In this document: piece by piece, positions 21,697 to 41,535 of the stretch
Layout of the letters: each line of letters opens with the position of its first letter
How positions within the stretch are numbered: the stretch's first letter is position 1
Source of the DNA: a virus
Direction: 5' to 3' (one strand)
DNA: 53,139 nt
Virus record (IMG/VR): IMGVR_UViG_3300027779_000039
Span: 1 to 53,139 of that record
Translations under genes and position numbers: made by a program
The notes under the pieces: generated by a model
The model's input: only the letters and a program-made list of their open reading frames with translations
Databases searched by the model: none
What the model was told of the DNA's origin: nothing

Positions 21697-22132
21697 ACTA
21701 AGTAACTATGTATTCCTTAAATATATCTACATGTAGTATGCCAAACTAGGTAACACCCCCTAATTTATAATTTTATGCAGCATCCGTATACACTATACCC
21801 CCCGCAGGGCGGTGGTCATACATACCCCGTAGATAAGCGTTTAAACTCAGTGGGTACTGTGTGGCAAAAATGCAACAAAATGATAGTATAATGATAGTTT
21901 TTAGAACGGTTCTAAACTAGGTAGTGTAACATTTTAGCAACTGTGTGTATAATGCAACACTATTTGCGGGGGAATGGGAAATAATAAAAATTATTAATAT
22001 ATTATAAGGGTTTAAACGGTCATACTATTTTAAATCAATTTTAAGAGCCATACAGGACAATTTCTTTAAATGGCTACCCACCTATTCAGAAATCTTAAAT
22101 CAAATTTGTTCTACTTTTGTTCTGATGAAGTT
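21697..22132. promoter_or_regulatory. Divergent control region, first copy of a duplicated regulatory block
   Basis: No reading frame is visible between 21662 and 22263. In order the region holds GTTTAAAC at 21839 and 22010, a pair of TGATAGT repeats 11 bases apart (21881-21898), the palindrome TTAGAACGGTTCTAA (21901-21915), a CGGTCATA element (22017-22024) and the block AAATCTTAAATCAAATTTG with two TTTTGTTCT/TTGTTCT repeats (22090-22123). The same blocks recur in the same order at 24.24-24.87 kb. It separates the two transcription arms and probably carries the main early switch. Confidence 0.65.
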
Positions 22133-22208
22133 TGTTACATTCTGTTACATTATTTTACTAACTTTTTTTAATTATTTTCTTGACCGTTTAAACTTAAAAT
22201 GCTCTAAT
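22133..22208 (+). promoter_or_regulatory. Early promoter with tandem TGTTACA boxes and GTTTAAAC in the spacer
   Basis: Two TGTTACA heptamers start at 22133 and 22143, ten bases apart. The -35 TTGACC is at 22180-22185, 31 bases past the second box. The -10 TCTAAT is at 22203-22208 with a 17-base spacer and an extended TGC before it. GTTTAAAC occupies the first eight bases of the spacer (22186-22193). The same boxes at the same distance precede a -35 at 24842. Boxes are candidate activator sites, and GTTTAAAC inside the spacer would allow a bound protein to block RNA polymerase; both roles are inferred. Confidence 0.65.
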
Positions 22209-22263
22209 CAAATCAAGGTTAAATCATTAGGGTTTAATCATCAACCAAATAAAGAGAGATTAG

Positions 22264-22623
22264 ATGACTAAATATAACTTAAAAAAAGAAACAGTCTTAA
22301 ACCCAAGTAAAATAAGACTATTAATACATACAGAAAGCCAATTAAAAAATGAACATGTTGGCGGGTGGATAGATGAAATTAAATTCATAAGCCATGAGGA
22401 CAATATATACTCAACTTCTAAAGTGTTCTTAACATATATTAAACCTATAAAAGTAAACGGGGATATGATTGGAAACATTAAATACGATTATGAAATTTCT
22501 CCAAATATGGATAGTGAAAGGGTTAGCTATCCAACTTTTGACGAAGGACACTTCACCTTAATAGAAGAAAAACATACTTTCCATGAAAAGGAAATTGAAG
22601 AACTAAACAACGATAATAAATAA
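22264..22623 (+). CDS. First plus-arm protein, unknown function
   Basis: A 119-residue protein starting behind AGAGAG. It is rich in Lys, Glu and Ile and has an acidic C-terminus (HTFHEKEIEELNNDNK). No cysteine pairs, membrane segment or known domain was recognised. As the first gene after the main early promoter it is a candidate host-takeover or regulatory protein. It is followed by a hairpin whose loop carries the GTTTAAAC element. Confidence 0.6.
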   Translation: MTKYNLKKETVLNPSKIRLLIHTESQLKNEHVGGWIDEIKFISHEDNIYSTSKVFLTYIKPIKVNGDMIGNIKYDYEISPNMDSERVSYPTFDEGHFTLIEEKHTFHEKEIEELNNDNK

Positions 22624-22632
22624 TTATTAATC

Positions 22633-22656
22633 GGGGAGGGTTTAAACGCTCTCCCC
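22633..22656 (+). other. Hairpin with TTTAAACG loop after the first early gene
   Basis: GGGGAGGG (22633-22640) pairs with CTCTCCCC (22649-22656) in eight pairs including one G-U, closing an eight-base loop TTTAAACG. It starts nine bases past the stop codon. No U-run follows, so it may stabilise the 3' end or present the loop rather than terminate. The next hairpin at 23364 has exactly the same loop. Confidence 0.55.
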
Positions 22657-22677
22657 ATCAACCACGAGGTAAATACA

Positions 22678-23349
22678 ATGAAAACAACTATTAAAACATA
22701 TGAAACATTAGGCGGTAAATTTGACGCTGTAATCAATGGCAATGAATACCAAATATTTAAGGGAAGTCGTGAAGAATACGGAACAAAAGGCTATAATGAA
22801 TTTCTAGTTCCTTACTTTAAAGAAAAAACGGGCTATGAATTACCGCCTGTTTTTGTATCAATGACTAGTAAATATAGAGAAAACGCTAAAGCATTGGCAG
22901 ACTGTACCACGTATTCAGATAGAATAGAAATATCTTTTAATGCTCATAAAGTTAAAGGTGAGACTGTAGAAGATACCCTTAGATTTTGGGATATTATGGT
23001 ACATGAGGGAATACATGCTTGCGGAATTGGTGGACATAAAAAAGATTTTGCAGACATAGGAAAAAAACTAGGCTTAACGGGTAGCGGTGAAAATAATAAT
23101 ACTTGGACAGCTACAATCTCAACCCCTCAATTAGATGAAACAATATTAAAAACTATTGTAAATAAATTAGGGCTATATCCTCAACATGAATTCAAACAGC
23201 ATTCAAAGAAAAAAGAAGCCGTAAGAAATATTAAAATAGAATGCTCTAATGATTGTGGATATTCTCACCGCTCAAGTATGAAAAATTTTAACATGCTAAC
23301 TAATACCACGTGCGGTGCATGTGGCGAGGGTGAACTAATAACCGCTTAA
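22678..23349 (+). CDS. SprT-like zinc metalloprotease with C-terminal zinc ribbon
   Basis: A 223-residue protein. The active-site motif HEGIH (109-113) with a third His at 120 (GGHKKDF) matches SprT-like proteases, where two His and Glu of HExxH and a downstream His bind zinc. The C-terminal Cys pairs (189, 193, 212 and 215) form the usual zinc ribbon of this family. Residues 55-90 hold the conserved beta region (PPVFVSM, DRIEISFN). In cells SPRTN-type enzymes cut DNA-bound proteins; a phage version expressed early could clear host proteins from DNA. The substrate is unknown. Confidence 0.75.
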   Translation: MKTTIKTYETLGGKFDAVINGNEYQIFKGSREEYGTKGYNEFLVPYFKEKTGYELPPVFVSMTSKYRENAKALADCTTYSDRIEISFNAHKVKGETVEDTLRFWDIMVHEGIHACGIGGHKKDFADIGKKLGLTGSGENNNTWTATISTPQLDETILKTIVNKLGLYPQHEFKQHSKKKEAVRNIKIECSNDCGYSHRSSMKNFNMLTNTTCGACGEGELITA

Positions 23350-23363
23350 ATTAAATCAACAAG

Positions 23364-23385
23364 GGGGTAGTTTAAACGCTACCCC
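23364..23385 (+). terminator. Hairpin with TTTAAACG loop after the SprT-like gene
   Basis: A perfect seven-base stem GGGGTAG (23364-23370) / CTACCCC (23379-23385) closes the eight-base loop TTTAAACG, identical in size and sequence to the loop at 22641-22648. It is followed by TATTTTA, so weak termination is possible. It begins about 15 bases past the stop codon. Confidence 0.6.
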
Positions 23386-23409
23386 TATTTTAAAATAAGG
23401 ATTAATACA

Positions 23410-23613
23410 ATGAAAACAATACAATTAAAATATAAAGAAAGTTATGGTAATAAAAGATTTTACCCTGACTGTGACTATTCACAAAACCTTTTACAATTTG
23501 TAAGCTATAATAAAAAATGTTTTACACTTGAGGAGTACCAAGTTCTAAAAGGTTGCCTAGGTTTTGATGTAATAATTAATAATGATATAGAGGAGGGTTT
23601 AAACGGTGAGTAA
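23410..23613 (+). CDS. Small protein of unknown function
   Basis: Sixty-seven residues with three cysteines (CDYS, KKCF and KGCLGF contexts), preceded by AAGGATT. Its last codons (GLNGE) contain the GTTTAAAC element at 23597, and its end overlaps the start of a mini-protein in another frame. No domain recognised. Confidence 0.5.
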   Translation: MKTIQLKYKESYGNKRFYPDCDYSQNLLQFVSYNKKCFTLEEYQVLKGCLGFDVIINNDIEEGLNGE

Positions 23614-23701
23614 CACAACGACAGAAGCAACGACAACACAAAAAATAATTTGTATAATGTCCTTAATCTTTTCAATAATTTATTTTTTATTTTTAAGATA
23701 G
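23606..23701 (+). CDS. 31-residue membrane mini-protein (GTG start)
   Basis: A GTG at 23606 follows GGAGG with exactly the GTTTAAACG element between binding site and start. The peptide has a Thr-rich start (SNTTTEATTTQ) and one membrane helix (IICIMSLIFSIIYFLFL). It overlaps the stop of the previous gene by eight bases. The strong ribosome binding site and a complete helix support it; no function can be assigned. Confidence 0.5.
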   Translation: MSNTTTEATTTQKIICIMSLIFSIIYFLFLR

Positions 23702-23704
23702 GTA

Positions 23705-23733
23705 TTGACAACAACGAATTAAAAAATTAATAT
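23705..23733 (+). promoter_or_regulatory. Sigma70-type promoter
   Basis: TTGACA (23705-23710), a 17-base spacer and TAATAT (23728-23733) precede the gene at 23760, whose AACGAGGTAAATAAA leader is typical of this arm. No TGTTACA boxes accompany it, so it may be constitutive, unlike the promoters at 22180 and 24842. Confidence 0.7.
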
Positions 23734-23759
23734 AAACTAATAACAACGAGGTAAATAAA

Positions 23760-24146
23760 ATGACTAAAATAAAAACAATAAGAGATAATAGCGGTACTGA
23801 TTACGACGGTACTATTGATGAGCCGTTTAGACAACGAAGGGTATTTGAACCGAAAAATAAAATAAGATTTCTTGGGACGACTAAAACATGGCGGGATAAG
23901 ATAAACGGTCAGACGTATTTTTCAACTAACGTTGAAGACATTGAGCGAGATGTTAATTACCTTTTCCCTATTACCAACGGCTATGGTGACCAATCAGAGT
24001 ATAACGTCAAGAGGGCGTTAGAGATTGACGACAGCGAGATAAGATTTATTAAAATTCCTAATTGTAAAAAGTCAGAAGTTAAAGAACACGGACAAGGACA
24101 AAAGGAAAATTACTTTTCCGACTTAGGATATTACTACCAAGATTAA
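23760..24146 (+). CDS. Unknown 128-residue protein with its own promoter and terminator
   Basis: A polar, charged protein without membrane segments; motifs such as DEPFRQRRVFEPKNKIRFLG and DVNYLFPITNGYGDQSEY are visible but belong to no family I recognise. It is the only gene between promoter 23705 and the strong terminator at 24179, so it forms a monocistronic unit directly next to the iteron region. That position would fit a regulator or replication initiator acting at the neighbouring repeats; there is no recognised DNA-binding motif to support this. Confidence 0.6.
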   Translation: MTKIKTIRDNSGTDYDGTIDEPFRQRRVFEPKNKIRFLGTTKTWRDKINGQTYFSTNVEDIERDVNYLFPITNGYGDQSEYNVKRALEIDDSEIRFIKIPNCKKSEVKEHGQGQKENYFSDLGYYYQD

Positions 24147-24148
24147 AC

Positions 24149-24172
24149 AGGTAAGCGTTTAAACAGTTACCT
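24149..24172 (+). other. Stem with GTTTAAAC in its loop
   Basis: AGGTAA (24149-24154) and TTACCT (24167-24172) frame a 12-base loop containing GTTTAAAC (24157-24164). It directly follows the stop codon of the preceding gene and directly precedes the strong terminator. It is the third hairpin in this arm that displays the element in a loop. Confidence 0.45.
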
Positions 24173-24178
24173 CCCCCT

Positions 24179-24217
24179 CCCCTCTAGTGTTATGGTTGGC
24201 ACTAGGGGGGTTTTTTT
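24179..24217 (+). terminator. Strong rho-independent terminator
   Basis: CCCCTCTAGTG (24179-24189) pairs with CACTAGGGGGG (24200-24210), 11 pairs with one G-U, followed by seven T. This is the best intrinsic terminator in the window. It insulates the first early unit from the 700-base non-coding region behind it. Confidence 0.9.
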
Positions 24218-24376
24218 GTGCCTAAAATTCTAGGCGTTTAAACGGACAGACTACCTCATTAAATCTTAGGCGTTTAAACGGGCAGATTATGACAGTAATA
24301 ATGATAGTATCGTGATAGTTTTTGTTCTCCTTTTGTTCTATGTATATATCAGAGAGTTTAAACGAGGTGTGTATAA

Positions 24377-24469
24377 GTGTTGTATTTATACCACGTTGTA
24401 TTTATGCAACAGAAATTAAGTGTTGTATTTATATCACGTTGTAAATATATCACGTTGTATTTATGCAAC
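24377..24469. repeat. Five-copy iteron array (GTTGTATTTATxYmAC)
   Basis: Copies begin at 24377, 24394, 24420, 24437 and 24453; each is 17-18 bases of the form (GT)GTTGTATTTATACCAC or CGTTGTATTTATGCAAC, the fourth reading GTTGTAAATATATCAC. Adjacent copies share their end base, and a nine-base spacer separates copies two and three. The ends of each copy (GTTG...CAAC or GTG...CAC) are themselves inverted, as in operators bound by dimers. Related TGCAACA sequences occur in the first control region near 21871 and 21937. Confidence 0.75.
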
Positions 24470-24478
24470 ACAGATAGA

Positions 24479-24551
24479 TTAGAATAGTTCTAAAGTATAG
24501 TTGCGAATGATTCTTAGAATAGTTCTAAAGTATAGATTAGAATAATTCTAA
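24479..24551. repeat. Three TTAGAAnnnTTCTAA palindromes
   Basis: Fifteen-base palindromes lie at 24479-24493, 24514-24528 and 24537-24551, each followed by AGTA; a shorter GAATGATTC lies between the first two. The same palindrome with centre CGG is in the first control region at 21901-21915. Spacing of starts is 35 and 23 bases. They look like operators for a dimeric regulator. Confidence 0.65.
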
Positions 24552-24794
24552 AGTAGATAAGCGTTTAAACGTTCTGTTACAATCTGTTACAATAATTTAT
24601 TAAAGTAGTTATTTTAGGGGTTTACAGGTTTTAACGGTCATAGAGCGTCATACAGACGATTTAAGCCTTTTGGCTACGCTAGTATCTAAAAATCCTAAAT
24701 CAAATTTGTTCTCTCTTTGTTCTCTTTTTTCCCTATATACATTATATATATAAAAAAACATTTTTTACTGAGCGTTTAAACGACTGATAAAGTT

Positions 24795-24875
24795 TGTTAC
24801 ATTGTGTTACAATTCTTTACCGAAAATAATTTATTTTTTTGTTGACGGGTTTATTTAAAAATGCAAAAATATAAA
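24795..24875 (+). promoter_or_regulatory. Early promoter with tandem TGTTACA boxes, second copy
   Basis: TGTTACA occurs at 24795 and 24805, ten bases apart. TTGACG at 24842-24847 lies 31 bases past the second box, the same distance as in the promoter at 22180. The spacer TTTAAAAATGC aligns with TTAAAATGC of the first copy; the -10 is poorer (AAAAAT with 17-base spacing, or TATAAA further down). It would drive the small-gene block beginning at 24918. Confidence 0.6.
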
Positions 24876-24917
24876 CACAGTCAATAATGATTGCAAATTT
24901 TTAGAGGTAAAAATAAA

Positions 24918-25184
24918 ATGATTAAAATATATGAACATGATAAAAAAGTATTTAATATGAGAAAAGAAATAAACATAAATAAATATAAAGCTGAAGAAGG
25001 CGAGGTAAAAGAGTATCAAGAATTTTTTGTAGAACTTGACGCAAAAGAGATACAGACACTTTGTCAGTTAATAGGTTTAACAATGAACAAAGGAATAGAG
25101 TTGGAAAACTTATACAAAAAATTATCAGACTTTAATAATCATACTAATCAAGAAGATTGTAGGCTTGAGTTATACACAGGCTAA
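24918..25184 (+). CDS. Small helical protein, unknown
   Basis: Eighty-eight residues from the ATG at 24918 behind AGAGGTAAAAATAAA; an upstream in-frame start lacks a binding site. Mostly helical and charged, with FFVELDAKEIQTLCQLIGLT in the middle. It is the first of a run of small genes, and its stop is followed three bases later by GTTTAAACGAGGAG. No family recognised. Confidence 0.55.
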   Translation: MIKIYEHDKKVFNMRKEININKYKAEEGEVKEYQEFFVELDAKEIQTLCQLIGLTMNKGIELENLYKKLSDFNNHTNQEDCRLELYTG

Positions 25185-25210
25185 CTGTTTAAACGAGGAG
25201 GAGAAATAAA

Positions 25211-25465
25211 ATGTTTATAATAAATCAAACTATGGGTAAAACAATCTCATATAGAAATTGGGGAATAACAACCACAATTCGTAAAGGTAAAAAATACTGG
25301 ATAATTGTGGAGGATTGTTTCGGTCAGTATGAAGAATATTGGCAATTAATTGACACATTAAAACAAGCTAAAAATTTAATAGATTTTTATGAAGAAAAAA
25401 AGAAACTTAATGCTGATGGTTATGAAGAAGAGGAAGTTTTAGAGTTAGACTGGTTGGTGGAATAA
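25211..25465 (+). CDS. Small protein of unknown function
   Basis: Eighty-four residues, start behind a triple GAGGAGGAG site that directly follows a GTTTAAAC element. The protein alternates strands in the first half (GITTTIRKGKKYWIIVED) and an acidic helix in the second (FYEEKKKLNADGYEEEEV), ending in LELDWLVE. A similar acidic ending (IEVDWFEE) occurs in the protein at 26308, which may hint at a shared interaction tail. Confidence 0.55.
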   Translation: MFIINQTMGKTISYRNWGITTTIRKGKKYWIIVEDCFGQYEEYWQLIDTLKQAKNLIDFYEEKKKLNADGYEEEEVLELDWLVE

Positions 25466-25466
25466 A

Positions 25467-25892
25467 ATGTTAAAATCTAAAAAATTAAAATTTAAAAAAT
25501 TACCATATGAAGCAAGTTATAAAACTTTGTTAAAAAGATTTCCTGAAATTAATATTGACCAAGATGATGATTTGGGTGATGAAACTTTTCACAAAGCCAT
25601 GAATGGTGCAAAGCCTTATTGGGTTGATATAAATGGACATTTTTATGAAAGATACGGTTTGTGTTGGGATAATGATTGTCCTGTGGCAGGATATTCACAT
25701 ATTGTATGGGGTAGTGATAATAGAGATAGTCATGTCCAAATTTGTGCAAAGTTTATATATTTAATTACAGAACATTTTAAAGATTGTCATTTTATTACAC
25801 CAAGAGACATTGTTGATTGGGGTGTAGCCCATAAGCCTATAAGTGATGAAGAAAGATATTGGACAGATTATTACGAAAATATTGGAAAGTAG
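25467..25892 (+). CDS. Unknown 141-residue protein
   Basis: Begins one base after the previous stop. It has paired aromatic and Cys/His residues in the centre (YERYGLCWDNDCPVAGYSHI) and a later HFKDCHFITPRDIVDWGVAH, a composition that could bind a metal, but no known domain was recognised. The stop codon TAG forms part of the following GTTTAAAC element (25892-25899). Confidence 0.55.
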   Translation: MLKSKKLKFKKLPYEASYKTLLKRFPEINIDQDDDLGDETFHKAMNGAKPYWVDINGHFYERYGLCWDNDCPVAGYSHIVWGSDNRDSHVQICAKFIYLITEHFKDCHFITPRDIVDWGVAHKPISDEERYWTDYYENIGK

Positions 25893-25915
25893 TTTAAACA
25901 ACGAGGAGAAATAAA

Positions 25916-26284
25916 ATGAAAAGTTTAATAGAAACAATACTACAAACAGCAGTAGATAAGGGCTATGAGTATGCTCTAATAGAGCCATACGACAGAACAA
26001 CAGAACTTAAAAGAACTAATGATGTATCGTTAGGTTTTGCAAATGCAAAAAATAAATGTCAAGGCATACATAATTATGACGAGATTATTATAGAGTTTTG
26101 GCACAAGGAAGAACACATGGGCAATCTTTATTGGACTAATGGGAACGATGACGCAGAACAAGTTTCTGATTACCATTGTAGATTAGATGACGAAGATAAT
26201 TTAGGTCTTGACACTATAATAAAACAATGGGAAAAAGACTTATTAAAAATAACACAACCCAATAATTCTGAAGCATGGAACTAA
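25916..26284 (+). CDS. Unknown 122-residue acidic protein
   Basis: Starts behind CAACGAGGAGAAATAAA after a GTTTAAAC element. Acidic overall, with the segment IEFWHKEEHMGNLYWTNGND and a C-terminal helix LDTIIKQWEKDLLKI. No cysteine pair apart from two single Cys. No family recognised; belongs to the early small-gene block. Confidence 0.55.
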   Translation: MKSLIETILQTAVDKGYEYALIEPYDRTTELKRTNDVSLGFANAKNKCQGIHNYDEIIIEFWHKEEHMGNLYWTNGNDDAEQVSDYHCRLDDEDNLGLDTIIKQWEKDLLKITQPNNSEAWN

Positions 26285-26307
26285 GGGTTTAAACGAGGAA
26301 AAGAATA

Positions 26308-26559
26308 ATGAGAAAGGCTAAATTTATAGAACTACAATATACAACACACGCTAGTTTAGACTTAGGGGAGGAGGGTATAAACCCTGATGACATTAAATCT
26401 ACATTCTTTAAGTGGGGTATGGCAGACATAGAACTTAAAGACGGGACTAAGCACACTATACATCTTAATCACCATGAGGTAGACTGTAAGTACCACGAGA
26501 AGGGGGGTGTCTATGATGATGATTACGAAAAAATTGAAGTGGATTGGTTTGAAGAGTAA
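26308..26559 (+). CDS. Unknown 83-residue protein
   Basis: Starts behind GAGGAAAAG after a GTTTAAAC element. It contains a GMADIELKDGTKHTIHLNHH strand pair with several His, and ends in the acidic IEVDWFEE that resembles the end of the protein at 25211. No known domain. Its stop is again followed within three bases by GTTTAAACGAGGAG. Confidence 0.5.
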   Translation: MRKAKFIELQYTTHASLDLGEEGINPDDIKSTFFKWGMADIELKDGTKHTIHLNHHEVDCKYHEKGGVYDDDYEKIEVDWFEE

Positions 26560-26582
26560 GAGTTTAAACGAGGAGAAGGATA

Positions 26583-26732
26583 ATGGATAAAGAGTGGCAG
26601 ACATTTATAGAAGAAGTCTATGAGATAGCTTTTGGAGACAACGCCTTTAACAGAGGATTTGATTCAGAAGAAGTCGTAACTAAACTAAAAGAATTTTCAG
26701 ACAACGCACACAAATGGGAGGAGAACGTTTAA
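26583..26732 (+). CDS. Small acidic helical protein (49 residues)
   Basis: Reading frame MDKEWQTFIEEVYEIAF onward, 49 residues, behind CGAGGAGAAGGATA. The composition is acidic with amphipathic helices and three Trp/Phe clusters. The stop TAA lies inside the GTTTAAAC element at 26727-26734. Binding site, spacing and position inside the regularly built block support it. Function unknown; small acidic phage proteins often act as DNA mimics or inhibitors, which is only a possibility here. Confidence 0.6.
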   Translation: MDKEWQTFIEEVYEIAFGDNAFNRGFDSEEVVTKLKEFSDNAHKWEENV

Positions 26733-26749
26733 ACGATATGAGTAAAGTA

Positions 26750-26802
26750 TGTTACATGGTGTTACAAAACTTTACTTGCATTATACTAATACTAATATAA
26801 AG
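26750..26802 (+). promoter_or_regulatory. TGTTACA pair with adjacent promoter candidate
   Basis: TGTTACA starts at 26750 and 26760, again ten bases apart. Immediately after it come TTTACT or TTGCAT -35 candidates and several TATACT/TAATAT -10 candidates up to 26798. The boxes are closer to the core promoter than in the other two copies, so they might act as an operator or a class II activator site. It precedes the winged-helix gene at 26827. Confidence 0.5.
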
Positions 26803-26826
26803 TCAAATTAACAACGGAGAAATAAA

Positions 26827-27156
26827 ATGAATATATTTAAAAAACTATTTAGTAAGGAAGCAGACTTTAGTGGAGAAGGTTATTCTGAGCCTAGAGATAA
26901 GTATAGACTAGGTAGACAAGCAGTTAAGGTCTATAACTATATGCACAACAACGGGTGGAAGAGTTTAAACGCCATAGCTAAAGCTACTGGAGAACCTTCA
27001 CCATCTATATCAGCACAGCTTAGAAACTTTAGAAAGCCTAGCTTTCAACCTGTAGACGCTATCTATGAAGTAGAGAAGAGATATGTACCTAAAGGGGTAT
27101 GGGAATATAAGTTGATAGTAGTGCCTAATAAAACTATGTTTAAGAAGGTTATATAA
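26827..27156 (+). CDS. Winged-helix DNA-binding protein, candidate regulator
   Basis: A 109-residue protein. Residues about 25-75 look like a winged helix: LGRQAVKVYNYMHNNGWKSL as helix 1, NAIAKATGEPSPSISAQLRN as helix-turn-recognition helix, and a beta wing ending in YVPKGVWEYKLIVV. It has its own box-bearing promoter region, and its recognition region even contains a GTTTAAAC (26963-26970, encoding SLN). It is the clearest sequence-specific DNA binder in the plus arm and so the first candidate for binding GTTTAAAC, TGTTACA or the palindromes; this link is inference. Confidence 0.65.
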   Translation: MNIFKKLFSKEADFSGEGYSEPRDKYRLGRQAVKVYNYMHNNGWKSLNAIAKATGEPSPSISAQLRNFRKPSFQPVDAIYEVEKRYVPKGVWEYKLIVVPNKTMFKKVI

Positions 27157-27470
27157 GGAGTTAGGAAAGAATTAATTTGGTTGGGAAAGGCGGTGAGAGT
27201 CCGTGGTGTAACCCTTAAACAAAGGAGAAAACCCATTAAAAGTATTCCCCAAGAGATTACCTATCAATGCCAAGTTATAAAAAATTATAGTACCCATTGT
27301 CTTAGATACATTATTTCGTTAAGTTGAGGGACATTGTCTTCAATGCAGAGAGGATACAGAGGCTGAGGTTGAGACTCGTATAATGGTGGGCTAAGTTAGT
27401 AGTTAAAACAGTTGCATGCCTAGACTACAAGCTATAAAATAAATAACGTTTAAACGCATAGGAGAATAAA
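27157..27470 (+). ncRNA. Non-coding stretch, possible structured RNA
   Basis: About 314 bases without a convincing reading frame, in an arm where genes are otherwise packed. It is richer in G than its surroundings. Visible elements are CGG-TGAGAGT-CCG (hairpin at 27191-27203), the flanking TTGGGAAAGG, a short ATTG-tctt-CAAT hairpin, GAGTC (27197) complementary to GACTC (near 27383), and AGGATAC near 27351. The GGGAA...GGTGAGAGTCC...AGGATAC order faintly recalls cobalamin riboswitches, but the essential CCCGC-ACTGT part is missing. The last part (27448-27470) is a GTTTAAAC plus ribosome binding site. Confidence 0.45.
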
Positions 27471-27629
27471 ATGCAATTAATTAAACCAAATACAAGATTT
27501 TATACAAAGAGTACGCCTAGATGGTTAAGAGAATTATGGGGGTATCATTCACACGATAGTAAGCCCGTTACAATGCCTAAGTATAAGTTTATGGAGAAAT
27601 ACCTTGACAGAGAAGAAGACACCAGATAA
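27471..27629 (+). CDS. Small basic protein (52 residues)
   Basis: Frame MQLIKPNTRFYTKSTPRWLR onward, behind GTTTAAACGCATAGGAGAATAAA. Lys/Arg/Tyr-rich, ending in EKYLDREEDTR. The start has a good AGGAG. No family recognised; the protein sits directly behind the putative structured RNA. Confidence 0.55.
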   Translation: MQLIKPNTRFYTKSTPRWLRELWGYHSHDSKPVTMPKYKFMEKYLDREEDTR

Positions 27630-27735
27630 GCCTAGAGTAGTAAGAGAGTTGCAAGGAACTTACACAAGAGTAAAAGAAGATAAGACTAAGTACAATAGAA
27701 AACGTTTAAACAATGAGGAGAAAGATGATGAGTAA
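27604..27735 (+). CDS. Possible 43-residue protein with TTG start
   Basis: A TTG at 27604 has GGAG eight bases upstream and opens a frame TEKKTPDKPRVVRELQGTY onward that overlaps the previous gene by 26 bases and the next by eight. The RELQGTYxRVKED part is reminiscent of the N-terminus of P27-type small terminases, but it is too short to judge. It fills an otherwise non-coding gap and contains GTTTAAAC (27704) as codons RLN. Tentative. Confidence 0.35.
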   Translation: MTEKKTPDKPRVVRELQGTYTRVKEDKTKYNRKRLNNEEKDDE

Positions 27736-27880
27736 AGAAAAATTAACAATGGGAGAACTACTAGACAGGCTAGACGCAGAGTTTTATGACGTAGATTTAA
27801 CAACGCATGACAGTCCTACAAAAGGAACAGTAGCAGTAGTACATTTTTATGAGGATAAACTTGATGAGGAGGAAGAATAA
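27728..27880 (+). CDS. Small acidic protein (50 residues)
   Basis: MSKEKLTMGELLDRLDAEFY onward, with acidic end DEEEE. Starts at the second of two adjacent ATGs (27725 or 27728) behind GAGGAGAAAG. The stop overlaps the next start as TAATG. No family recognised. Confidence 0.6.
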   Translation: MSKEKLTMGELLDRLDAEFYDVDLTTHDSPTKGTVAVVHFYEDKLDEEEE

Positions 27881-28059
27881 TGGCACAGTTTAGTATAAGT
27901 TTTAGTTTAACAAGAGACAATGACTTAAAAAGTGATGATGAGTCGTGGTTTGATAAAGAACATATATCTAATGAAATTAAATCATGGTTAGAGGATTTAG
28001 ATTTTAAGGTTGAGGCAATAGAAATAAAGGATAAAAATGAAGTACGTTTATATTATTAG
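27880..28059 (+). CDS. Small protein with acidic helix (59 residues)
   Basis: MAQFSISFSLTRDNDLKSDD onward, coupled to the previous gene by TAATG. The segment KSWLEDLDFKVEAIEIK is encoded by the first copy of a 44-base direct repeat; the second copy lies just behind the stop and serves as leader of the next gene. No domain recognised. Confidence 0.55.
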   Translation: MAQFSISFSLTRDNDLKSDDESWFDKEHISNEIKSWLEDLDFKVEAIEIKDKNEVRLYY

Positions 28060-28099
28060 AGGATTTAGATTTTAAGGTTGAGGCAATAGAAATAAAGGA
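27988..28099 (+). repeat. 44-base direct repeat, coding copy and leader copy
   Basis: Bases 27988-28031 and 28056-28099 are identical. The first copy encodes the end of the 59-residue protein; the second is non-coding and ends in the AAAGGA that begins the next ribosome binding site. The bases after the second copy (GGAGAAAGATGATGAGTAA) match the leader at 27718-27735. This looks like a recent recombination or slippage event that created a new leader. Confidence 0.85.
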
Positions 28100-28107
28100 G
28101 AAAGATG

Positions 28108-28176
28108 ATGAGTAATTGGCAGATATTTGAATTATCAATAGGCATAGTATGTATTGCTATATTGTGGAACATATAA
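28108..28176 (+). CDS. 22-residue membrane mini-protein
   Basis: MSNWQIFELSIGIVCIAILW plus NI: a polar start and one membrane helix. An ATG one codon upstream (28105) is equally possible. The GGAGAAAGATG leader is excellent. Such single-helix mini-proteins are common in phage early regions and often modulate membrane proteins; the role here is unknown. Confidence 0.5.
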   Translation: MSNWQIFELSIGIVCIAILWNI

Positions 28177-28189
28177 AAGGAGAAGAATA

Positions 28190-28357
28190 ATGAACGCCAA
28201 CGATTTAAGTAGTGCTTTGTGCGATATGTATGACGTTAAACGTGCCTTGAGAACGGAAGTTCTGTTAGCACCCAAAGATAATGAAGGTACTGAAACTACC
28301 ATTGGTGAATGTATTGATGACGTTATTGAATTTCTTGAAACTTTGGAGGGGATATAA
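28190..28357 (+). CDS. Small acidic protein (55 residues)
   Basis: Starts at ATG 28190 behind AAGGAGAAGAATA (MNANDLSSALCDMYDVKRAL); a longer in-frame extension overlaps the mini-protein and is unlikely. Helical, with TTIGECIDDVIEFLETLEGI as C-terminal helix. Its stop overlaps the next ATG (TAATG). Function unknown. Confidence 0.6.
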   Translation: MNANDLSSALCDMYDVKRALRTEVLLAPKDNEGTETTIGECIDDVIEFLETLEGI

Positions 28358-28551
28358 TGGACATAGTATTAAATGAAGATTACTGGGATTGTGAATGCTT
28401 ATCAAATTACATTCATAGTAAAAAAAAATTAGAGTGTAGTAAATGTAATTCTTTAGCAGATGAACAACCTGATAGCCGACAAGAGGAGGTAAAATATTAC
28501 AAACCCATGACTTTAAAAGAAAGAAACTACAGAAAGAAACATAATTTATAG
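28357..28551 (+). CDS. Small protein with Cys pairs
   Basis: Sixty-four residues containing WDCECLSNYIHSKKKLECSK followed by CNSLADEQPDSR. Four Cys in two closely spaced pairs plus one His fit a small zinc-binding finger, and YKPMTLKERNYRKKHNL is a basic tail. Coupled to the upstream gene. The exact family is not recognised; nucleic-acid or protein binding is plausible. Confidence 0.6.
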   Translation: MDIVLNEDYWDCECLSNYIHSKKKLECSKCNSLADEQPDSRQEEVKYYKPMTLKERNYRKKHNL

Positions 28552-28561
28552 GAGAAGTATA

Positions 28562-28714
28562 ATGGCTAAAAAACAGATACAAGGAAAGAATAGAAAGAAG
28601 ACTACTAAAGCTATGTCTCATACGGGAGGCAACAGTAGACCATTAAAAGATATATACTTTGATGAGGTATCACACAAATGGTTTAAACGCCCTATAAAAA
28701 TAGAGGAGGCATAA
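28562..28714 (+). CDS. Small basic protein (50 residues)
   Basis: MAKKQIQGKNRKKTTKAMSH onward, Lys-rich at the N-terminus and acidic at the end (KIEEA). Leader TAGGAGAAGTATA. Codons WFKR contain a GTTTAAAC (28681-28688). The next start follows after one base. No family recognised. Confidence 0.55.
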   Translation: MAKKQIQGKNRKKTTKAMSHTGGNSRPLKDIYFDEVSHKWFKRPIKIEEA

Positions 28715-28715
28715 G

Positions 28716-28913
28716 ATGAGTACATACAGAGACATAATAAGAAAGATACTATACTTTGAAGAACTAGGGACATTGAGCCTAGACCAAGAGATAACAGAAG
28801 AAAGTTTAAACGACCTAAGAGAAGGTATGATACATTTCGCACCTAACAACGTGCCTTACAATGATGACAGGCAGATGAACATAGACGATTACCTAGATAA
28901 AAAAGGAACATAA
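28716..28913 (+). CDS. Small acidic protein (65 residues)
   Basis: MSTYRDIIRKILYFEELGTL onward, amphipathic helices, Asp/Glu-rich, ending in DDYLDKKGT. The start is preceded by GAGGAGGCATAAG. GTTTAAAC at 28804 encodes SLN. The next ATG follows directly after the stop. Function unknown. Confidence 0.6.
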   Translation: MSTYRDIIRKILYFEELGTLSLDQEITEESLNDLREGMIHFAPNNVPYNDDRQMNIDDYLDKKGT

Positions 28914-28914
28914 C

Positions 28915-29208
28915 ATGGACAAGAAAGCAATACTAATGGCAATAGCCAGTAAAGACGATATAGAGCATATAACAGACGCTATAATGAAGTTTGTAGATAA
29001 GACTTCAGCAGAGGTAGGAGTAGATAGAGAAGACGTTGCTACAAGTTCTCTAGTAGCTTTACTATTATACTATGTAAAGAACTCTTCAGAAGATAAGGCA
29101 GTAGCCGTAGGTAATTTAATGAGTTTATTGAGTAGTGTGTTTATAATAACTTCTACTGCTACTAATTGGGTAGAAGTACAGGAAGAACCTAGTGGGGGTA
29201 TTAACTAG
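28915..29208 (+). CDS. Small helical protein with hydrophobic C-terminal region
   Basis: Ninety-seven residues. N-terminal helix MDKKAILMAIASKDDIEHIT, then VATSSLVALLLYYVKN and VAVGNLMSLLSSVFIITSTA as hydrophobic stretches that could be membrane segments or buried helices. It ends the small-gene subgroup: behind it lies a stem-loop (29206-29258). No family recognised. Confidence 0.55.
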   Translation: MDKKAILMAIASKDDIEHITDAIMKFVDKTSAEVGVDREDVATSSLVALLLYYVKNSSEDKAVAVGNLMSLLSSVFIITSTATNWVEVQEEPSGGIN

Positions 29209-29258
29209 GTTATATATAGTGTAGCCCCCCACGGGAGATGCGTGTAGCATATAACCTA
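29206..29258 (+). terminator. Stem-loop with 10-bp perfect stem
   Basis: TAGGTTATAT (29206-29215) and ATATAACCTA (29249-29258) are perfect complements around a 33-base loop that holds two GTGTAGC repeats and CCCCCCACGGG. It overlaps the stop codon of the preceding gene and is followed by ATTTTAATG. The AT-rich stem makes it a poor terminator, so another RNA role is possible. Confidence 0.5.
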
Positions 29259-29291
29259 ATTTTAATGTTGTCAAATTATAAGGAGATAAAA

Positions 29292-29483
29292 ATGGCAGAT
29301 ATAAATATACAGACAGAAGAAATAGTAAATGAAGTTTTAGACGAAGCAAGAGATACCATTATCCAAAGGGGAGGTCAGGAGTTGGAGTGGTCATACCATG
29401 CGGACACAGACTTAAAAAAGATTGTTGTAGTGTTTGCTACTAACAAAGAAGATGACGAAGAACTATTAACGAAAGGAATGTGA
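29292..29483 (+). CDS. Small acidic protein (63 residues)
   Basis: Starts at ATG 29292 behind AAGGAGATAAAA; a longer frame would run through the stem-loop. MADINIQTEEIVNEVLDEAR is helical, followed by a strand pair (LKKIVVVFATNKEDDEEL). No recognised domain. One base separates it from the next gene. Confidence 0.6.
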   Translation: MADINIQTEEIVNEVLDEARDTIIQRGGQELEWSYHADTDLKKIVVVFATNKEDDEELLTKGM

Positions 29484-29484
29484 T

Positions 29485-29748
29485 ATGAGAAATACGTTTA
29501 GTAACTTTTCTGAACACAAGCAGTATCTTGTAGGCTTAATACACCGATTACTGTTTAGTGTAAAAAGAAAATCTAGGACAGTAAAGTACATAAAAAAATA
29601 TCTTAGGTATGAGGTTGAAGAATACAAAGAGTTAGATAATAGTAGTATTCACGATTTTGATGATATTATATGTGCGGGTAGACGAGAATTAGCAGAAAGT
29701 TTATTAGAAGAATTAGAGAGGTGGGAACATGGTCAAAAAAGATTCTGA
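29485..29748 (+). CDS. Small basic helical protein (87 residues)
   Basis: MRNTFSNFSEHKQYLVGLIH onward, Lys/Arg/Tyr-rich middle (KRKSRTVKYIKKYLRYEVEE), helix-rich end with LAESLLEELERWEHGQ. It overlaps the next gene by 20 bases. Function unknown. Confidence 0.55.
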   Translation: MRNTFSNFSEHKQYLVGLIHRLLFSVKRKSRTVKYIKKYLRYEVEEYKELDNSSIHDFDDIICAGRRELAESLLEELERWEHGQKRF

Positions 29749-29968
29749 AGAAACTATGTATACGATAGCAAGACAAGACCTTGCCCGCATAGAAGAATAT
29801 GAGGTGCAATGGATAGAGTTCTTTGGTTGTTGGGTAAGGTTAGAAAGGTCGTCAGAGACAGGGCAATCCGTTATGATTACTGTACACAAAGATGAAGATT
29901 CAGATTACATAGGTAAGTTAGTAGTTAATAATGAGTGTTTAAACCCCAAGGAGATAGCAGATGAGTAA
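29729..29968 (+). CDS. Small protein (79 residues)
   Basis: Starts inside the end of the previous gene (MVKKDSEETMYTIARQDLAR) behind AGAGAGGTGG. Beta-type pattern CWVRLERSSETGQSVMITVH. GTTTAAAC at 29937 encodes CLN. Overlaps the next gene by eight bases. Unknown function. Confidence 0.55.
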   Translation: MVKKDSEETMYTIARQDLARIEEYEVQWIEFFGCWVRLERSSETGQSVMITVHKDEDSDYIGKLVVNNECLNPKEIADE

Positions 29969-30185
29969 AAAATTAATATATACTTTTCACGGAGAGAATC
30001 ATCATTGTGATGAGGTAGAGTTAGATAGTTTTTTAGATAGCTTTAATAACCATGCACCCGAATTTTTTGAGAACATTAGAGCATTCTCTTCTAAAAAAGA
30101 TAGAGATACTTTTGCTACTAGAGAGACAGAAAGAGACGCAGAAGTTACTGAACGTTTAAACGCTATACTAAACAGAGGATTTTAA
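29961..30185 (+). CDS. Small acidic protein (74 residues)
   Basis: MSKKLIYTFHGENHHCDEVE with a His/Cys cluster, then helices and TERLNAILNRGF, where GTTTAAAC (30154) encodes RLN. It ends directly at the primase start, so it is in the replication operon. Function unknown. Confidence 0.55.
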   Translation: MSKKLIYTFHGENHHCDEVELDSFLDSFNNHAPEFFENIRAFSSKKDRDTFATRETERDAEVTERLNAILNRGF

Positions 30186-30977
30186 TTGAGGGCTACAGAA
30201 AGACTTCATCAAGCTATACAAGAATTAAATTTAGAAGATGAGGCTACACAGAGACTTGATTGTGTCGAGTGTGGGAAAAGAAATACCCTTACTGTAACTA
30301 GGATAGACGGGAAGATATTATGGAATTGTTATTCTGCTTCTTGTAGTATTGGAGGAGTGACTGATGCAGAATACTCTAGGGAAGATGTTACTAACAAAGT
30401 ACATCTCGTACCTAAAGAAAAAGAAGACAAGCCTTTTGTAGTACCTGATTATTTTGTAAGAGATGTAACGAGAAGTAGTGACTGTTTAAACTACATCAAT
30501 GAATTTAATTTTATGTCTGTTTATGATAAGAACCCAGAAAGATTTATGTATGATGTCAAAGGAGATAGATTAGTTTTTATGACAGTATATGATGGTGTTG
30601 TTGTGGGTGCAGTTGGAAGGGCATTGAAGTACGGGATTAAATGGTACAGGTACGATACTTGTCACACGCCTTTTATTATACAGGGCGGAGACTCTATTGC
30701 TGTAGTTGTAGAAGATTGTACTTCAGCATGTGTTGTAGCCACTGTGGGAACAGGGATAGCCTTGTTAGGTACTAATCTTTTGACTGAGCATATACAATAT
30801 CTAAAACCTTATAAGAACCTTGTAGTAGCTTTAGATAGAGACGCTACAGATAAAGCCATTGACATACAACGTAAGTTAGCTATTCATGTAGACAGATGCA
30901 AAGTTCTTATTTTGGAAAGGGACTTGAAGTACGAGAACGAAACAAGTATTAAAAATTTATTAGGAGAGATGATGTAA
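30186..30977 (+). CDS. Toprim primase with N-terminal zinc ribbon
   Basis: A 263-residue protein with a TTG start (30186) behind AGAGGA. Residues 26-53 form a zinc ribbon (Cys 26, 29, 48 and 53), as in the T7 gp4 and DnaG primases. The Toprim domain follows at about 168-235 with the catalytic Glu in VVVEDCTSA (176) and the DRD metal motif at 217-219. There is no helicase domain; the helicase is a separate gene 270 bases further on. It makes RNA primers for lagging-strand synthesis. GTTTAAAC at 30484 encodes CLN. Confidence 0.85.
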   Translation: MRATERLHQAIQELNLEDEATQRLDCVECGKRNTLTVTRIDGKILWNCYSASCSIGGVTDAEYSREDVTNKVHLVPKEKEDKPFVVPDYFVRDVTRSSDCLNYINEFNFMSVYDKNPERFMYDVKGDRLVFMTVYDGVVVGAVGRALKYGIKWYRYDTCHTPFIIQGGDSIAVVVEDCTSACVVATVGTGIALLGTNLLTEHIQYLKPYKNLVVALDRDATDKAIDIQRKLAIHVDRCKVLILERDLKYENETSIKNLLGEMM

Positions 30978-31222
30978 TGGCATTTAGAAAAAAGATTATA
31001 CCAAGAAATTCTAAGAATAGAGGAATAAGATTAGGAGTAGATTTTAATGACATAGTAGATGATGAGACTGCAGGAGATTGGTCGCAGATATGTAGTGACT
31101 GCCAGAGGAAGCATAATTTTCACAAAGCTAAGTTAGATGAATATAACATTGACAACGAGACTATATGCGGTATAAGAAGATGCGACAACATAGCAAGTTT
31201 GTTTATTACTTTTGATAGATAG
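30977..31222 (+). CDS. Small Cys-containing protein between primase and helicase
   Basis: Eighty-one residues, coupled to the primase by TAATG. It has CSDCQRKH and CGIRRCDN, four Cys in two pairs about 27 residues apart, a likely zinc finger, and a basic N-terminus (MAFRKKIIPRNSKNRGIRLG). Placement between primase and helicase suggests a replication accessory protein. The family is not recognised. Confidence 0.6.
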   Translation: MAFRKKIIPRNSKNRGIRLGVDFNDIVDDETAGDWSQICSDCQRKHNFHKAKLDEYNIDNETICGIRRCDNIASLFITFDR

Positions 31223-31246
31223 CGTTTAAACATAGAGGAAAATAAT

Positions 31247-32476
31247 ATGACAAGTATGCCTAAAGAAATATTAAAAAAGTATGCGACTAACCATGACTTT
31301 CACAATCAAGTAGTAGATAGATTAGATGACACCATGTTTTCTAATGGGTTGTTAAAAGTTAAACATGCGGTAGATGACGCATATAAAAAGTATAAGGACA
31401 AAGACCTAACGTTGACTGATATTGCTATGAATTATATAGCTACGTTCCCGTCAATAACAGTAAGCCAGAAAGATTCTATAATGGCAGACTTTGAGGTAAT
31501 TAAAAAACTAAACGATATAGATGATGATATAGCATTTGACATGGTCTATAAGATGTCTCTTCAATCTCAGGCACAGAAAGTTGCTCAACAGTCTATAAAG
31601 ATAATGCAAGGCGACCACTACGACTCTACCTCGGTAATCAGGGCTACTGAAAAACTTAGGTCTATGGCGGATAGAGGGAAAGAAAGCGAGCTTAGAGCAT
31701 CTAACGACATGGAAGAATTGTTTGATGAGTTAGACCAAGAACATCACTACACTTTTCATATACCTAGTTTAAACGACAGGGTAGGAGGAATAAGCAAGGG
31801 AATGTTTGTTGTTGTAGGAGCTAGACCTAACGTAGGTAAGTCAGGGTTTGCTCATTCTATGATAGCCTCTCCAAAAGGTTTCTTAGACCAAGGTGCTAAA
31901 TGTATTATGTTTACTAATGAGGAGAAGGCTCAAAGACATATGTTAAGAATGGTTACTGCCTCATGCCAAGAAAGAATATCTTATGTAAAAGAATACAAGC
32001 ATAGGTTTGTAGATAAATGGAAAAAGAAGTCAGAGAATTTACATATATTTGATTCTAGTAGCTTGACATTCGGAGAGATTGAGGCAATAGTGGAGAAAGA
32101 AAAGCCTGATGTAATAGTCATAGATATTTTAGATAAGACTCAGATAGGCGGAACATTTGCTAGAGACGACCAACGACTAACGAGTTTATACGCAGAGAGT
32201 AGAGACTTAGCTAAAAGACAGGAGTGTGTTGTGTTTGGTATGTGCCAGTTATCCGCAGAAGCATCAGGTAAGATTATATTAAACGATTCTATGCTGTCAG
32301 GCTCAAGAACAGGTAAGGCAGGTGAGGCGGATTTAATTGTTTTAATTGGTAAGGAAGAGACAGAAGAAGGTGATACCAATATGAGATGGATTAACATAGT
32401 AAAGAATAAAATTACAGGTCAGCATGGAAACTTTGCAGTTATGTTTGACCATTTAACAGCATCTTACATGGACTAA
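31247..32476 (+). CDS. Replicative DNA helicase, DnaB-like
   Basis: A 409-residue protein. The RecA-type ATPase has Walker A GARPNVGKS (191-199), the NEEK motif near 224-227, Walker B VIDILD (291-296) and the conserved FGMCQLSAEA glutamine region. The N-terminal 150 residues are helical, as in the primase-interaction domain of DnaB-like helicases. It unwinds the replication fork as a hexamer together with the separate primase. GTTTAAAC occurs before its ribosome binding site (31224) and inside it (31767). Confidence 0.88.
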   Translation: MTSMPKEILKKYATNHDFHNQVVDRLDDTMFSNGLLKVKHAVDDAYKKYKDKDLTLTDIAMNYIATFPSITVSQKDSIMADFEVIKKLNDIDDDIAFDMVYKMSLQSQAQKVAQQSIKIMQGDHYDSTSVIRATEKLRSMADRGKESELRASNDMEELFDELDQEHHYTFHIPSLNDRVGGISKGMFVVVGARPNVGKSGFAHSMIASPKGFLDQGAKCIMFTNEEKAQRHMLRMVTASCQERISYVKEYKHRFVDKWKKKSENLHIFDSSSLTFGEIEAIVEKEKPDVIVIDILDKTQIGGTFARDDQRLTSLYAESRDLAKRQECVVFGMCQLSAEASGKIILNDSMLSGSRTGKAGEADLIVLIGKEETEEGDTNMRWINIVKNKITGQHGNFAVMFDHLTASYMD

Positions 32477-32492
32477 GGTGTTTAAACGTATA

Positions 32493-32625
32493 TCTCCGTC
32501 TTATAACTTGGGATGGAGAAGCGACTGAGCCTAGTCTATATGAGAAAGAATTGTCCCTCCTCTGGATTACTCTCTCATACTTTAGACGATTGTGTTACCT
32601 CGTACAATCTATTAAGCTCAGTCGC
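32493..32625 (+). ncRNA. Three-way-junction RNA in the DNA polymerase leader
   Basis: The gap 32477-32643 is non-coding. Four perfect or near-perfect helices are visible: an upstream hairpin TCTCCGTC/GATGGAGA (32493-32500 with 32512-32519), a closing stem GCGACTGAGC/GCTCAGTCGC (10 bp, 32521-32530 with 32616-32625), and within it TATGAGA/TCTCATA (32539-32545 with 32573-32579) and GATTGT/ACAATC (32588-32593 with 32604-32609). The closing stem ends 18 bases before the polymerase ATG, so folding could control translation. It matches no riboswitch or ribozyme core that I can recognise. Confidence 0.7.
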
Positions 32626-32643
32626 ACTCATTAAGGAAACAGT

Positions 32644-34797: not shown

Positions 34798-34847
34798 CAG
34801 AATTACGTTGCCAAAAATGTCATGGCACAAAGACGGAGAAAATATAG
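34794..34847 (+). CDS. Possible 17-residue CxxCHG peptide
   Basis: An ATG overlapping the polymerase stop (ATGA) opens the frame MTELRCQKCHGTKTEKI. The CQKCHGT motif resembles half of a zinc finger and the CxxCxG units within the polymerase itself. There is no good ribosome binding site of its own, so it would depend on coupling. It may be a real mini-protein or a remnant of a longer zinc-finger gene. Low confidence. Confidence 0.3.
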   Translation: MTELRCQKCHGTKTEKI

Positions 34848-34882
34848 TGCTTAAAAAAAGAAATAAATATTAGCATTATAAT

Positions 34883-34913
34883 TTGACATTTATTAAAAAT
34901 AGAGTATAACTCT
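34883..34913 (+). promoter_or_regulatory. Strong promoter with palindrome over the -10 box
   Basis: TTGACA (34883-34888), a 16-base spacer and TATAAC (34905-34910). The -10 lies inside the 13-base palindrome AGAGT-ATA-ACTCT (34901-34913), which could be an operator. The downstream gene has the canonical AGGAGGT binding site, so it is probably produced in quantity. Confidence 0.7.
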
Positions 34914-34937
34914 ATAACACTTTAACAGGAGGTCTAT

Positions 34938-35810: not shown

Positions 35811-35811
35811 C

Positions 35812-37025: not shown

Positions 37026-37097
37026 TAGTCTTTTTTAGGTCAGCGTTAGGTGTAATCATACTTAACACTTTCTTTAATTTATTAATAGTTTATAGTG

Positions 37098-37121
37098 ACA
37101 CAAATGAAAATATCTTTGTGT
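37098..37121 (+). other. Hairpin before the DUF3310 gene
   Basis: ACACAAA (37098-37104) and TTTGTGT (37115-37121) pair around a 10-base loop, directly before the GGGAGAG binding site of the next gene. The rest of the gap 37026-37139 is non-coding, with a weak TTAACA promoter-like element near 37061. Confidence 0.4.
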
Positions 37122-37139
37122 TCGGGAGAGAAAAACTGA

Positions 37140-39672: not shown

Positions 39673-39673
39673 T

Positions 39674-41513: not shown

Positions 41514-41535
41514 ACACCTACCTATACGCATTAAA

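What the first reader, a model, noticed from the sequence alone, without database searches (positions are those of the whole stretch)
25184..26576. Stop-GTTTAAACGAGGAG-start joints act as a repeated intergenic module
Four consecutive gene joints (25187, 25892, 26287 and 26562) have the same build: stop codon, zero to three bases, GTTTAAAC, then a GAGGA ribosome binding site; at 23597 the element lies between binding site and start codon. The repeated joint gives every small gene an identical border, which would let genes be swapped by homologous recombination at the borders, or be co-regulated at translation by a factor covering the binding site.
Basis: partly seen in the sequence, partly recalled or inferred. 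Interest (0 to 1): 0.7.

Follow-up and report, generated by a model that had tools for sequence, protein, structure and literature searches.

The report
Phage operator array with SprT-like regulator
A strict eight-letter DNA word scattered about 36 times through this marine phage's early genes is most likely the binding site of a phage-made regulator, a SprT-like protein with a zinc domain; the same word-plus-protein pairing recurs in many unrelated phages, including temperate ones whose repressor has never been found.

Summary
The GTTTAAAC joints are real, but they are a small part of something larger. GTTTAAAC occurs 38 times in the window (1.6 expected), 36 of them in the 21.8-42.2 kb early/replication region, and at least 14 lie inside genes. 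Near relatives keep 14/15 and 11/11 copies, against about 33% of same-composition words; copies inside coding sequence are kept equally well. It is therefore a selected DNA site, not a gene border. Dense dispersed arrays of the same 8-mer recur in more than 100 other viral contigs, some with no detected gene in common with the window except one. The shared protein family is a SprT-like metalloprotease with a C-terminal zinc domain (phrog_6361; window 22678-23349): 67/126 dense loci versus 1/94 background. In 13/13 array-bearing isolates carrying it, a site lies just upstream of that gene. Actinobacterial relatives use GTTTACAC, the most enriched 8-mer of each genome tested. Homologues that lost the conserved zinc-domain arginines (Dismas, Armstrong, CN2) have no array; homologues reduced to about 55 aa of zinc domain have among the densest. 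Best reading: an autoregulated, operator-binding transcriptional repressor, and a candidate for the unidentified immunity repressor of cluster AZ/EH phages. Binding and repression are inferred, not tested.

The parts
25187..25194 (.). GTTTAAAC copy at a gene joint (first-reader site 1)
25892..25899 (.). GTTTAAAC copy overlapping a TAG stop codon (first-reader site 2)
26287..26294 (.). GTTTAAAC copy at a gene joint (first-reader site 3)
   Evidence: homology with L008 breaks and resumes here
26562..26569 (.). GTTTAAAC copy at a gene joint (first-reader site 4)
   Evidence: conserved in L008
23597..23604 (.). GTTTAAAC copy between an SD and a GTG start
21839..42176 (.). whole array: 36 of the window's 38 GTTTAAAC copies (first at 21839, last at 42169), over the + strand early/replication region
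   Evidence: region genes identified
22180..22208 (+). putative sigma70-type promoter TTGACC-17-TCTAAT of the first early operon, with a GTTTAAAC (22186-22193) filling the start of the -35/-10 spacer
   Evidence: sequence; analogous spacer sites in other array phages; promoter not tested
22264..22623 (+). first gene of that operon, 119 aa, unknown
   Evidence: no family
22633..22656 (+). strong hairpin with GTTTAAAC in its loop, 30 bp upstream of the SprT-like start codon
   Evidence: -16.7 kcal/mol, z -4.2; same arrangement in L167
22678..23349 (+). SprT-like metalloprotease (HEGIH) with C-terminal zinc domain, phrog_6361: candidate reader of GTTTAAAC
23363..23386 (+). second hairpin with GTTTAAAC in its loop, just downstream of the SprT-like gene
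   Evidence: -15.3 kcal/mol, z -4.5; conserved in L020 and L023
26963..26970 (.). intragenic GTTTAAAC inside a winged-helix-like gene (26827-27156), conserved in L008
31767..31774 (.). intragenic GTTTAAAC in the DnaB-like helicase gene, conserved in 8 of 16 aligned sequences
35955..35962 (.). intragenic GTTTAAAC in the PDDEXK nuclease gene, conserved in 12 of 18 aligned sequences

Best explanation
GTTTAAAC is the operator of a phage-encoded DNA-binding regulator, and the regulator is most likely the SprT-like + zinc-domain protein encoded in the array (window 22678-23349). Its C-terminal zinc domain, with conserved arginines R183 and R198, would read GTTTA[A/C]AC. A site in or next to the promoter of its own operon gives negative autoregulation. 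Further sites in early promoters, at gene joints and inside early genes would silence the early region by blocking initiation and possibly elongation. The protease half may remove or modify the regulator, by analogy with DNA-triggered self-cleavage of SPRTN (own knowledge); phages that lost it keep the zinc half. Shown here: site enrichment, selection on sites, recurrence, co-occurrence with this protein, a site upstream of its gene, and loss of the array with loss of the arginines. Inferred: direct binding, repression, timing, and any role of proteolysis.
For: Array and selection: 38 copies vs 1.6; sites kept 14/15 in L008 and 11/11 in L010 vs 32-34% of same-composition words, coding-only 11/12 and 11/11, p 4e-5 and 1e-5. 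Protein link: the blastp link between the window and the GC-61% record G001 is this family; 67/126 dense loci vs 1/94 background, Fisher 6e-20; found in 10 of the 13 array records read at length (the other three are partial); absent from nine isolate genomes related to the window, which have 0-3 copies. Autoregulation: a site 16-20 bp upstream of the start in five proteobacterial isolates (Arya, ep3, Persinger, Alexa, Mano) where it is also the top 8-bp palindrome; within 150 bp upstream in 46/66 homologues. Motif co-variation: in Yang, Percival, Zeta1847, Floof, SuMoo and Microdon the most enriched 8-mer of the genome is GTTTACAC (13-43 vs 0.02-0.08), one copy upstream of SprT in each; Powerpuff 27, YesChef 26, same-host controls BlueFeather, Abba, Whytu 0. 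Natural mutants: Dismas, Armstrong and CN2 lost the Q-x-T-R and Y-x-x-R residues and have no array; 53-58 aa zinc-domain-only homologues sit in very dense arrays. Promoters: TTGACATGA-GTTTAAAC-GATGCC-CTAAAT and similar; 28 promoter-like sequences with a site in the spacer vs 11.9 expected, many of them related copies. Fold: top PDB match human SPRTN 6mdx/6mdw, Z about 8.
Against: No binding data. Many supporting phages are related to one another, so counts are not independent. G004, G009, G013 and the L102 group have arrays but no homologue was found in the partial sequence held. The zinc-domain model has low confidence (pLDDT 73) and no close structural match. The protein does not explain why actinobacterial phages use GTTTACAC. 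In the window's own protein the T of the TR motif is V. The window has no detectable integrase, so a lysogeny role there is unlikely. The gene could simply be a member of the regulon of another, unseen factor.
Confidence: 0.62

Rival explanations
1. The array is read by another protein (a host factor, or an unrecognised phage protein), and the SprT-like gene is only one of its autoregulated-looking targets.
For: Some array records (G004, G009, G013, L102 group) show no homologue in the sequence held. Other families also carry upstream sites in more than half their members.
Against: Families with upstream sites other than this one were not linked to the window or G001, whereas this one spans lineages. 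Array loss coincides with loss of specific residues of this protein. Same-host phages differ completely, 27 vs 0 sites on A. globiformis, which argues against a host reader.
Confidence: 0.22
2. Identical gene borders for cassette exchange by homologous recombination.
For: Homology breaks at 26295, 27448 and 31232 coincide with elements in L008, L010, L015, L019 and L020.
Against: 14 of 35 copies are inside genes and strongly conserved there. Other breaks are not at elements. The word recurs in unrelated phages, and an 8-bp identity is short for homologous recombination.
Confidence: 0.06
3. RNA- or translation-level element near start codons, like start-associated sequences.
For: GTTTAAAC lies directly before ATG in 134 of 2994 contexts, above the mean of 54 per position. 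Two copies flanking the SprT-like gene lie in strong hairpin loops.
Against: Position relative to SD and start varies. Many copies are intragenic or in promoter spacers. The asymmetric GTTTACAC form occurs in both orientations in genomes transcribed mostly in one direction, e.g. Yang 14/6 and SuMoo 3/10.
Confidence: 0.05
4. Site of DNA modification, replication, packaging or genome organisation rather than transcription control.
For: Spread over the replication region, strict 8-bp palindrome, positional turnover between lineages (0/11 sites shared with L019).
Against: Sites concentrate in early regions, joints and promoter spacers; one lies upstream of the SprT-like gene in every array isolate tested.
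Confidence: 0.05

Closest known systems
Cluster A mycobacteriophage stoperators (L5/TipsytheTRex repressor; PMC9283540)
   Same: More than 20 short strict repressor sites across early promoters and gene joints of a phage genome, read by one phage protein.
   Different: L5 sites are 13 bp, asymmetric, and oriented with transcription, read by a monomeric HTH + stoperator-domain repressor. Here the core is 8 bp, a palindrome or (GTTTACAC) found in both orientations, many copies are intragenic, and the candidate reader is a zinc domain fused to a SprT-like protease.
SPRTN / SprT-like metalloproteases (6mdx, 6mdw)
   Same: HExxH protease domain followed by a zinc-binding DNA-contacting domain; top structural matches of the window protein.
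   Different: SPRTN acts on DNA-protein crosslinks and is not known, to my knowledge, to read a specific DNA word. Many array phages have lost its protease half.
Start-associated and intergenic repeat motifs of actinobacteriophages (PMC7302621)
   Same: Conserved short motifs repeated in small intergenic gaps upstream of early genes.
   Different: Those motifs are longer, clade-specific and intergenic. In the passages read, none is described for cluster EH or Zeta1847, where GTTTACAC is found here.
ImmR/ImmA-type repressor-protease switches (own knowledge)
   Same: Repressor and metalloprotease functions linked in a mobile element.
   Different: ImmA is a separate protease that cleaves ImmR; here protease-like and DNA-binding halves are in one polypeptide. 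Cleavage is not shown.

Membership tests
Cluster A stoperators | many short strict sites over early region | tested here: met
   38 vs 1.6 expected
Cluster A stoperators | asymmetric site oriented with transcription | tested here: not met
   palindrome in the window; GTTTACAC in both orientations in mostly one-directional genomes
Cluster A stoperators | sites in promoters and short intergenic spaces | tested here: inconclusive
   18/35 intergenic vs 5.1 random, but 14/35 intragenic
Cluster A stoperators | HTH repressor that terminates elongation | not testable with these tools
   candidate reader is a zinc domain; no transcription data
SprT-like family (phrog_6361) | sequence profile match | tested here: met
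   E 1.4e-17, residues 47-217; no Pfam match reported for the window protein
SprT-like family (phrog_6361) | HExxH active site | tested here: met
   HEGIH in the window protein; lost in the densest array phages
SprT-like family (phrog_6361) | SPRTN-like fold | tested here: inconclusive
   model pLDDT 82; 6mdx/6mdw top with Z 8.1 and 8.0 over about 100 residues, but minimal archaeal zincins score nearly the same
HMO-2011-type podoviruses (host virus) | portal, polA, terminase, RNR homologues in matching gene order | tested here: met
   portal 65% identity to HMO-2011 and polA 39-42% identity to HMO-2011, CRP and HTVC033P phages
Immunity repressor of temperate phage | confers superinfection immunity | not testable with these tools
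   published Powerpuff immunity pattern agrees with site counts 27/26 vs 0 (PMC8758107)
Temperate phage (window) | tyrosine or serine integrase | tested here: not met
   PF00589 and PF00239 not found in the record; the record may be incomplete

The most novel reading that the evidence does not exclude
A widespread new class of phage repressor in which a SPRTN-like protease and its operator-reading zinc domain are one polypeptide: DNA damage or replication intermediates trigger self-cleavage and so induction. It would be the missing immunity repressor of temperate cluster AZ/EH actinobacteriophages, with protease-less zinc-only descendants acting as plain early-gene repressors in other phages.
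Probability: 0.2. Interest if true: 0.93.

Novelty: new variant of a known kind. Interest (0 to 1): 0.8.

Why it matters
Dispersed repressor sites are known chiefly from cluster A mycobacteriophages. This links one 8-bp word and its one-base variant to a single, mostly unstudied protein family across marine, proteobacterial and actinobacterial phages. It gives a first testable function for phage SprT-like proteins. It also gives a concrete candidate for an open question: Powerpuff forms stable, immune lysogens although no repressor could be identified (PMC8758107). If confirmed, it would let operators, immunity groups and temperate potential be predicted directly from sequence.

Tried and rejected
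SprT presence alone as determinant of GTTTAAAC: rejected (Yang, Percival, Zeta1847 have 0-2), then resolved when GTTTACAC was found. Enrichment of CGAGCTCG in Zeta1847 and others was considered as an alternative array word; not pursued, may be composition or codon use. Window winged-helix protein 26827-27156 as reader: its distant relatives in other contigs have 0-1 sites. Genome contigs triple scan: hits are mostly tandem repeats with near-identical flanks, not dispersed arrays. Acinetobacter phage Loki as a held-out case: its SprT-like protein did not match alignment A2 and it has only 3 GTTTAAAC, so uninformative. Literature searches for the words in phages found no description; only open-licence papers are held. 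Rfam scan of the stretch 26700-27700: nothing. Zinc-domain fold search: no row reached Z 5.

Full report
Check of the observation. GTTTAAAC is at all five stated positions, but they are a sample: the window holds 38 copies against 1.6 expected, 36 of them between 21.8 and 42.2 kb, where small early genes and the primase, DnaB-like helicase, PolA, nuclease and RNR genes lie on the + strand. The four joints are not consecutive (the 25465/25467 joint has none), and at 25892 the element overlaps the stop codon. Of 35 copies between 21.7 and 41.6 kb, 18 are intergenic, 3 straddle gene ends and 14 are inside genes; the intergenic share exceeds random positions (5.1) and same-composition words (22%). 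One-mismatch variants are rare.

Selection. The window is an HMO-2011-type podovirus. Against L008 and L010 (PolA 85-87% identical) 14/15 and 11/11 alignable copies are intact versus 32-34% of words of the same composition. Restricted to coding sequence the figures are 11/12 and 11/11 (p about 4e-5 and 1e-5). In a sister group (L011, L015) copies are kept at near the control rate, and against L019/L020 (about 72% identical) almost no position is shared although those contigs have their own copies. Individual positions therefore turn over while the array persists in some lineages and decays in others.

Recurrence. A 14-mer scan brought in unrelated phages that are also studded with the word: whole records have 20-54 copies at GC from about 0.33 to 0.62, with 0-3 for the reversed control. 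A triple-site pattern hit at least 120 viral contigs, most with unrelated flanks and up to 4.7 sites/kb; in bacterial genomes the same pattern finds mostly tandem repeats.

The protein. All-against-all blastp of array phages linked the window to the GC-61% record G001 only through one family, the window's 22678-23349 product: a SprT-like protein (phrog_6361) with HEGIH and a C-terminal zinc domain. A profile finds it in 67/126 dense loci, mostly fragments of about 10 kb, and 1/94 background loci (Fisher 6e-20). It is present in 10 of the 13 array records read at length (the other three are partial), and absent from nine isolate genomes related to the window, which have 0-3 copies. Caveat: phages within a clade are not independent, and both locus sets were fetched through GTTTAAAC patterns.

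Autoregulation. Five proteobacterial isolates carrying the family have 4-8 copies, against at most about one expected; the word is the top 8-bp palindrome in each, and one copy lies 16-20 bp before the SprT start codon, after a plausible -10 box (ep3: TATAAT-CTAAACAC-GTTTAAAC). Across array loci, 46/66 homologues have a site within 150 bp upstream. In several, the site lies in the -35/-10 spacer, as in the window's own early promoter TTGACC-GTTTAAACTTAAAATGC-TCTAAT at 22180-22208 upstream of the operon that includes the SprT-like gene. A site in a 17-bp spacer fits repression better than activation. Promoters are predictions.

Motif co-variation and natural mutants. Actinobacterial isolates with the family have almost no GTTTAAAC. 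Instead the single most enriched 8-mer in Yang, Percival, Zeta1847, Floof, SuMoo and Microdon is GTTTACAC (13-43 copies, 0.02-0.08 expected), with one just upstream of SprT in each. Three homologues without either array, Dismas, Armstrong and CN2, have lost the Q-x-T-R and Y-x-x-R residues of the zinc domain that are otherwise kept (R183 and R198 in window numbering are invariant in alignment A2). Thirteen of thirteen isolates with the residues have an array versus none of three without (Fisher 0.002). Conversely, many dense-array phages have lost HExxH, and a group is reduced to 53-58 aa of zinc domain. This points to the zinc domain, not the protease, as the part tied to the sites.

Structure. 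The window model (pLDDT 82) has human SPRTN as top PDB match (6mdx/6mdw, Z about 8), with minimal archaeal zincins close behind. SPRTN also pairs a protease with a DNA-binding zinc domain (own knowledge). The isolated zinc domain is modelled poorly.

Link to an open question. Cluster AZ phage Powerpuff forms stable lysogens immune to Powerpuff, Lego and YesChef, while BlueFeather and Abba still infect them, and no repressor could be identified (PMC8758107); cluster EH and Zeta1847 are likewise described as lacking an identified repressor gene (PMC7302621). Here Powerpuff and YesChef have 27 and 26 GTTTACAC, one directly before the SprT-like gene, and BlueFeather, Abba and Whytu have none. This matches the immunity pattern but does not prove it. 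The window itself has no integrase detected, so there an early-gene shut-off role is likelier than lysogeny.

First-reader ideas. Breaks of homology with relatives do coincide with some element joints (26295, 27448, 31232) but not others. Intragenic conservation and unrelated phages rule out borders as the main function. Translation control is not supported as a general role because position relative to SD and start varies. Orientation-independence of GTTTACAC separates this from L5 stoperators, whose sites follow transcription (PMC9283540).

What remains open: direct binding, repression, the role of the protease half, how A versus C at the sixth base is read, and whether array phages without a detected homologue (G004, G009, G013, L102 group) have one in sequence not held.

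Noticed in passing
window 22134, 24576, 24796, 26751: Four copies of a 10-bp-period tandem TGTTACAnnnTGTTACA, each before an early gene; also in L008, L019, L020, L023, often next to GTTTAAAC. Looks like a second promoter or activator element.
   Followed up: partly
window 27155-27278: Non-coding stretch 83-85% identical in L019 and L020 while flanks diverge; no Rfam match. Possible uncharacterised RNA.
   Followed up: partly
window 22633-22656 and 23363-23386: Two strong GC hairpins with GTTTAAAC in the loop flank the SprT-like gene; two ordinary joint sites folded for comparison have no such hairpin.
   Followed up: partly
window whole record: CTGCAG is over-represented (37 vs 9.6 expected).
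   Followed up: no
L188 (Zeta1847), L463 (SuMoo), L186 (Yang): CGAGCTCG strongly enriched (81, 34 and 20 copies); may be composition or a second dispersed word.
   Followed up: no
L011, L013, L014, L015: Sister lineage of the window with a decayed GTTTAAAC array despite 83-86% PolA identity; no SprT homologue region is covered by these contigs, so whether the gene is lost or changed is unknown.
   Followed up: partly
L329, L354, L395, L316: Exceptionally dense arrays (4-4.7 GTTTAAAC per kb) in viral contigs whose SprT homologues have lost the protease motif or the whole protease domain.
   Followed up: partly
window 21215-21661 (-): Endonuclease VII/HNH-like gene at the divergent early promoter region, with weak matches to T4 decoy-of-sigma70 and Srd families.
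   Followed up: no
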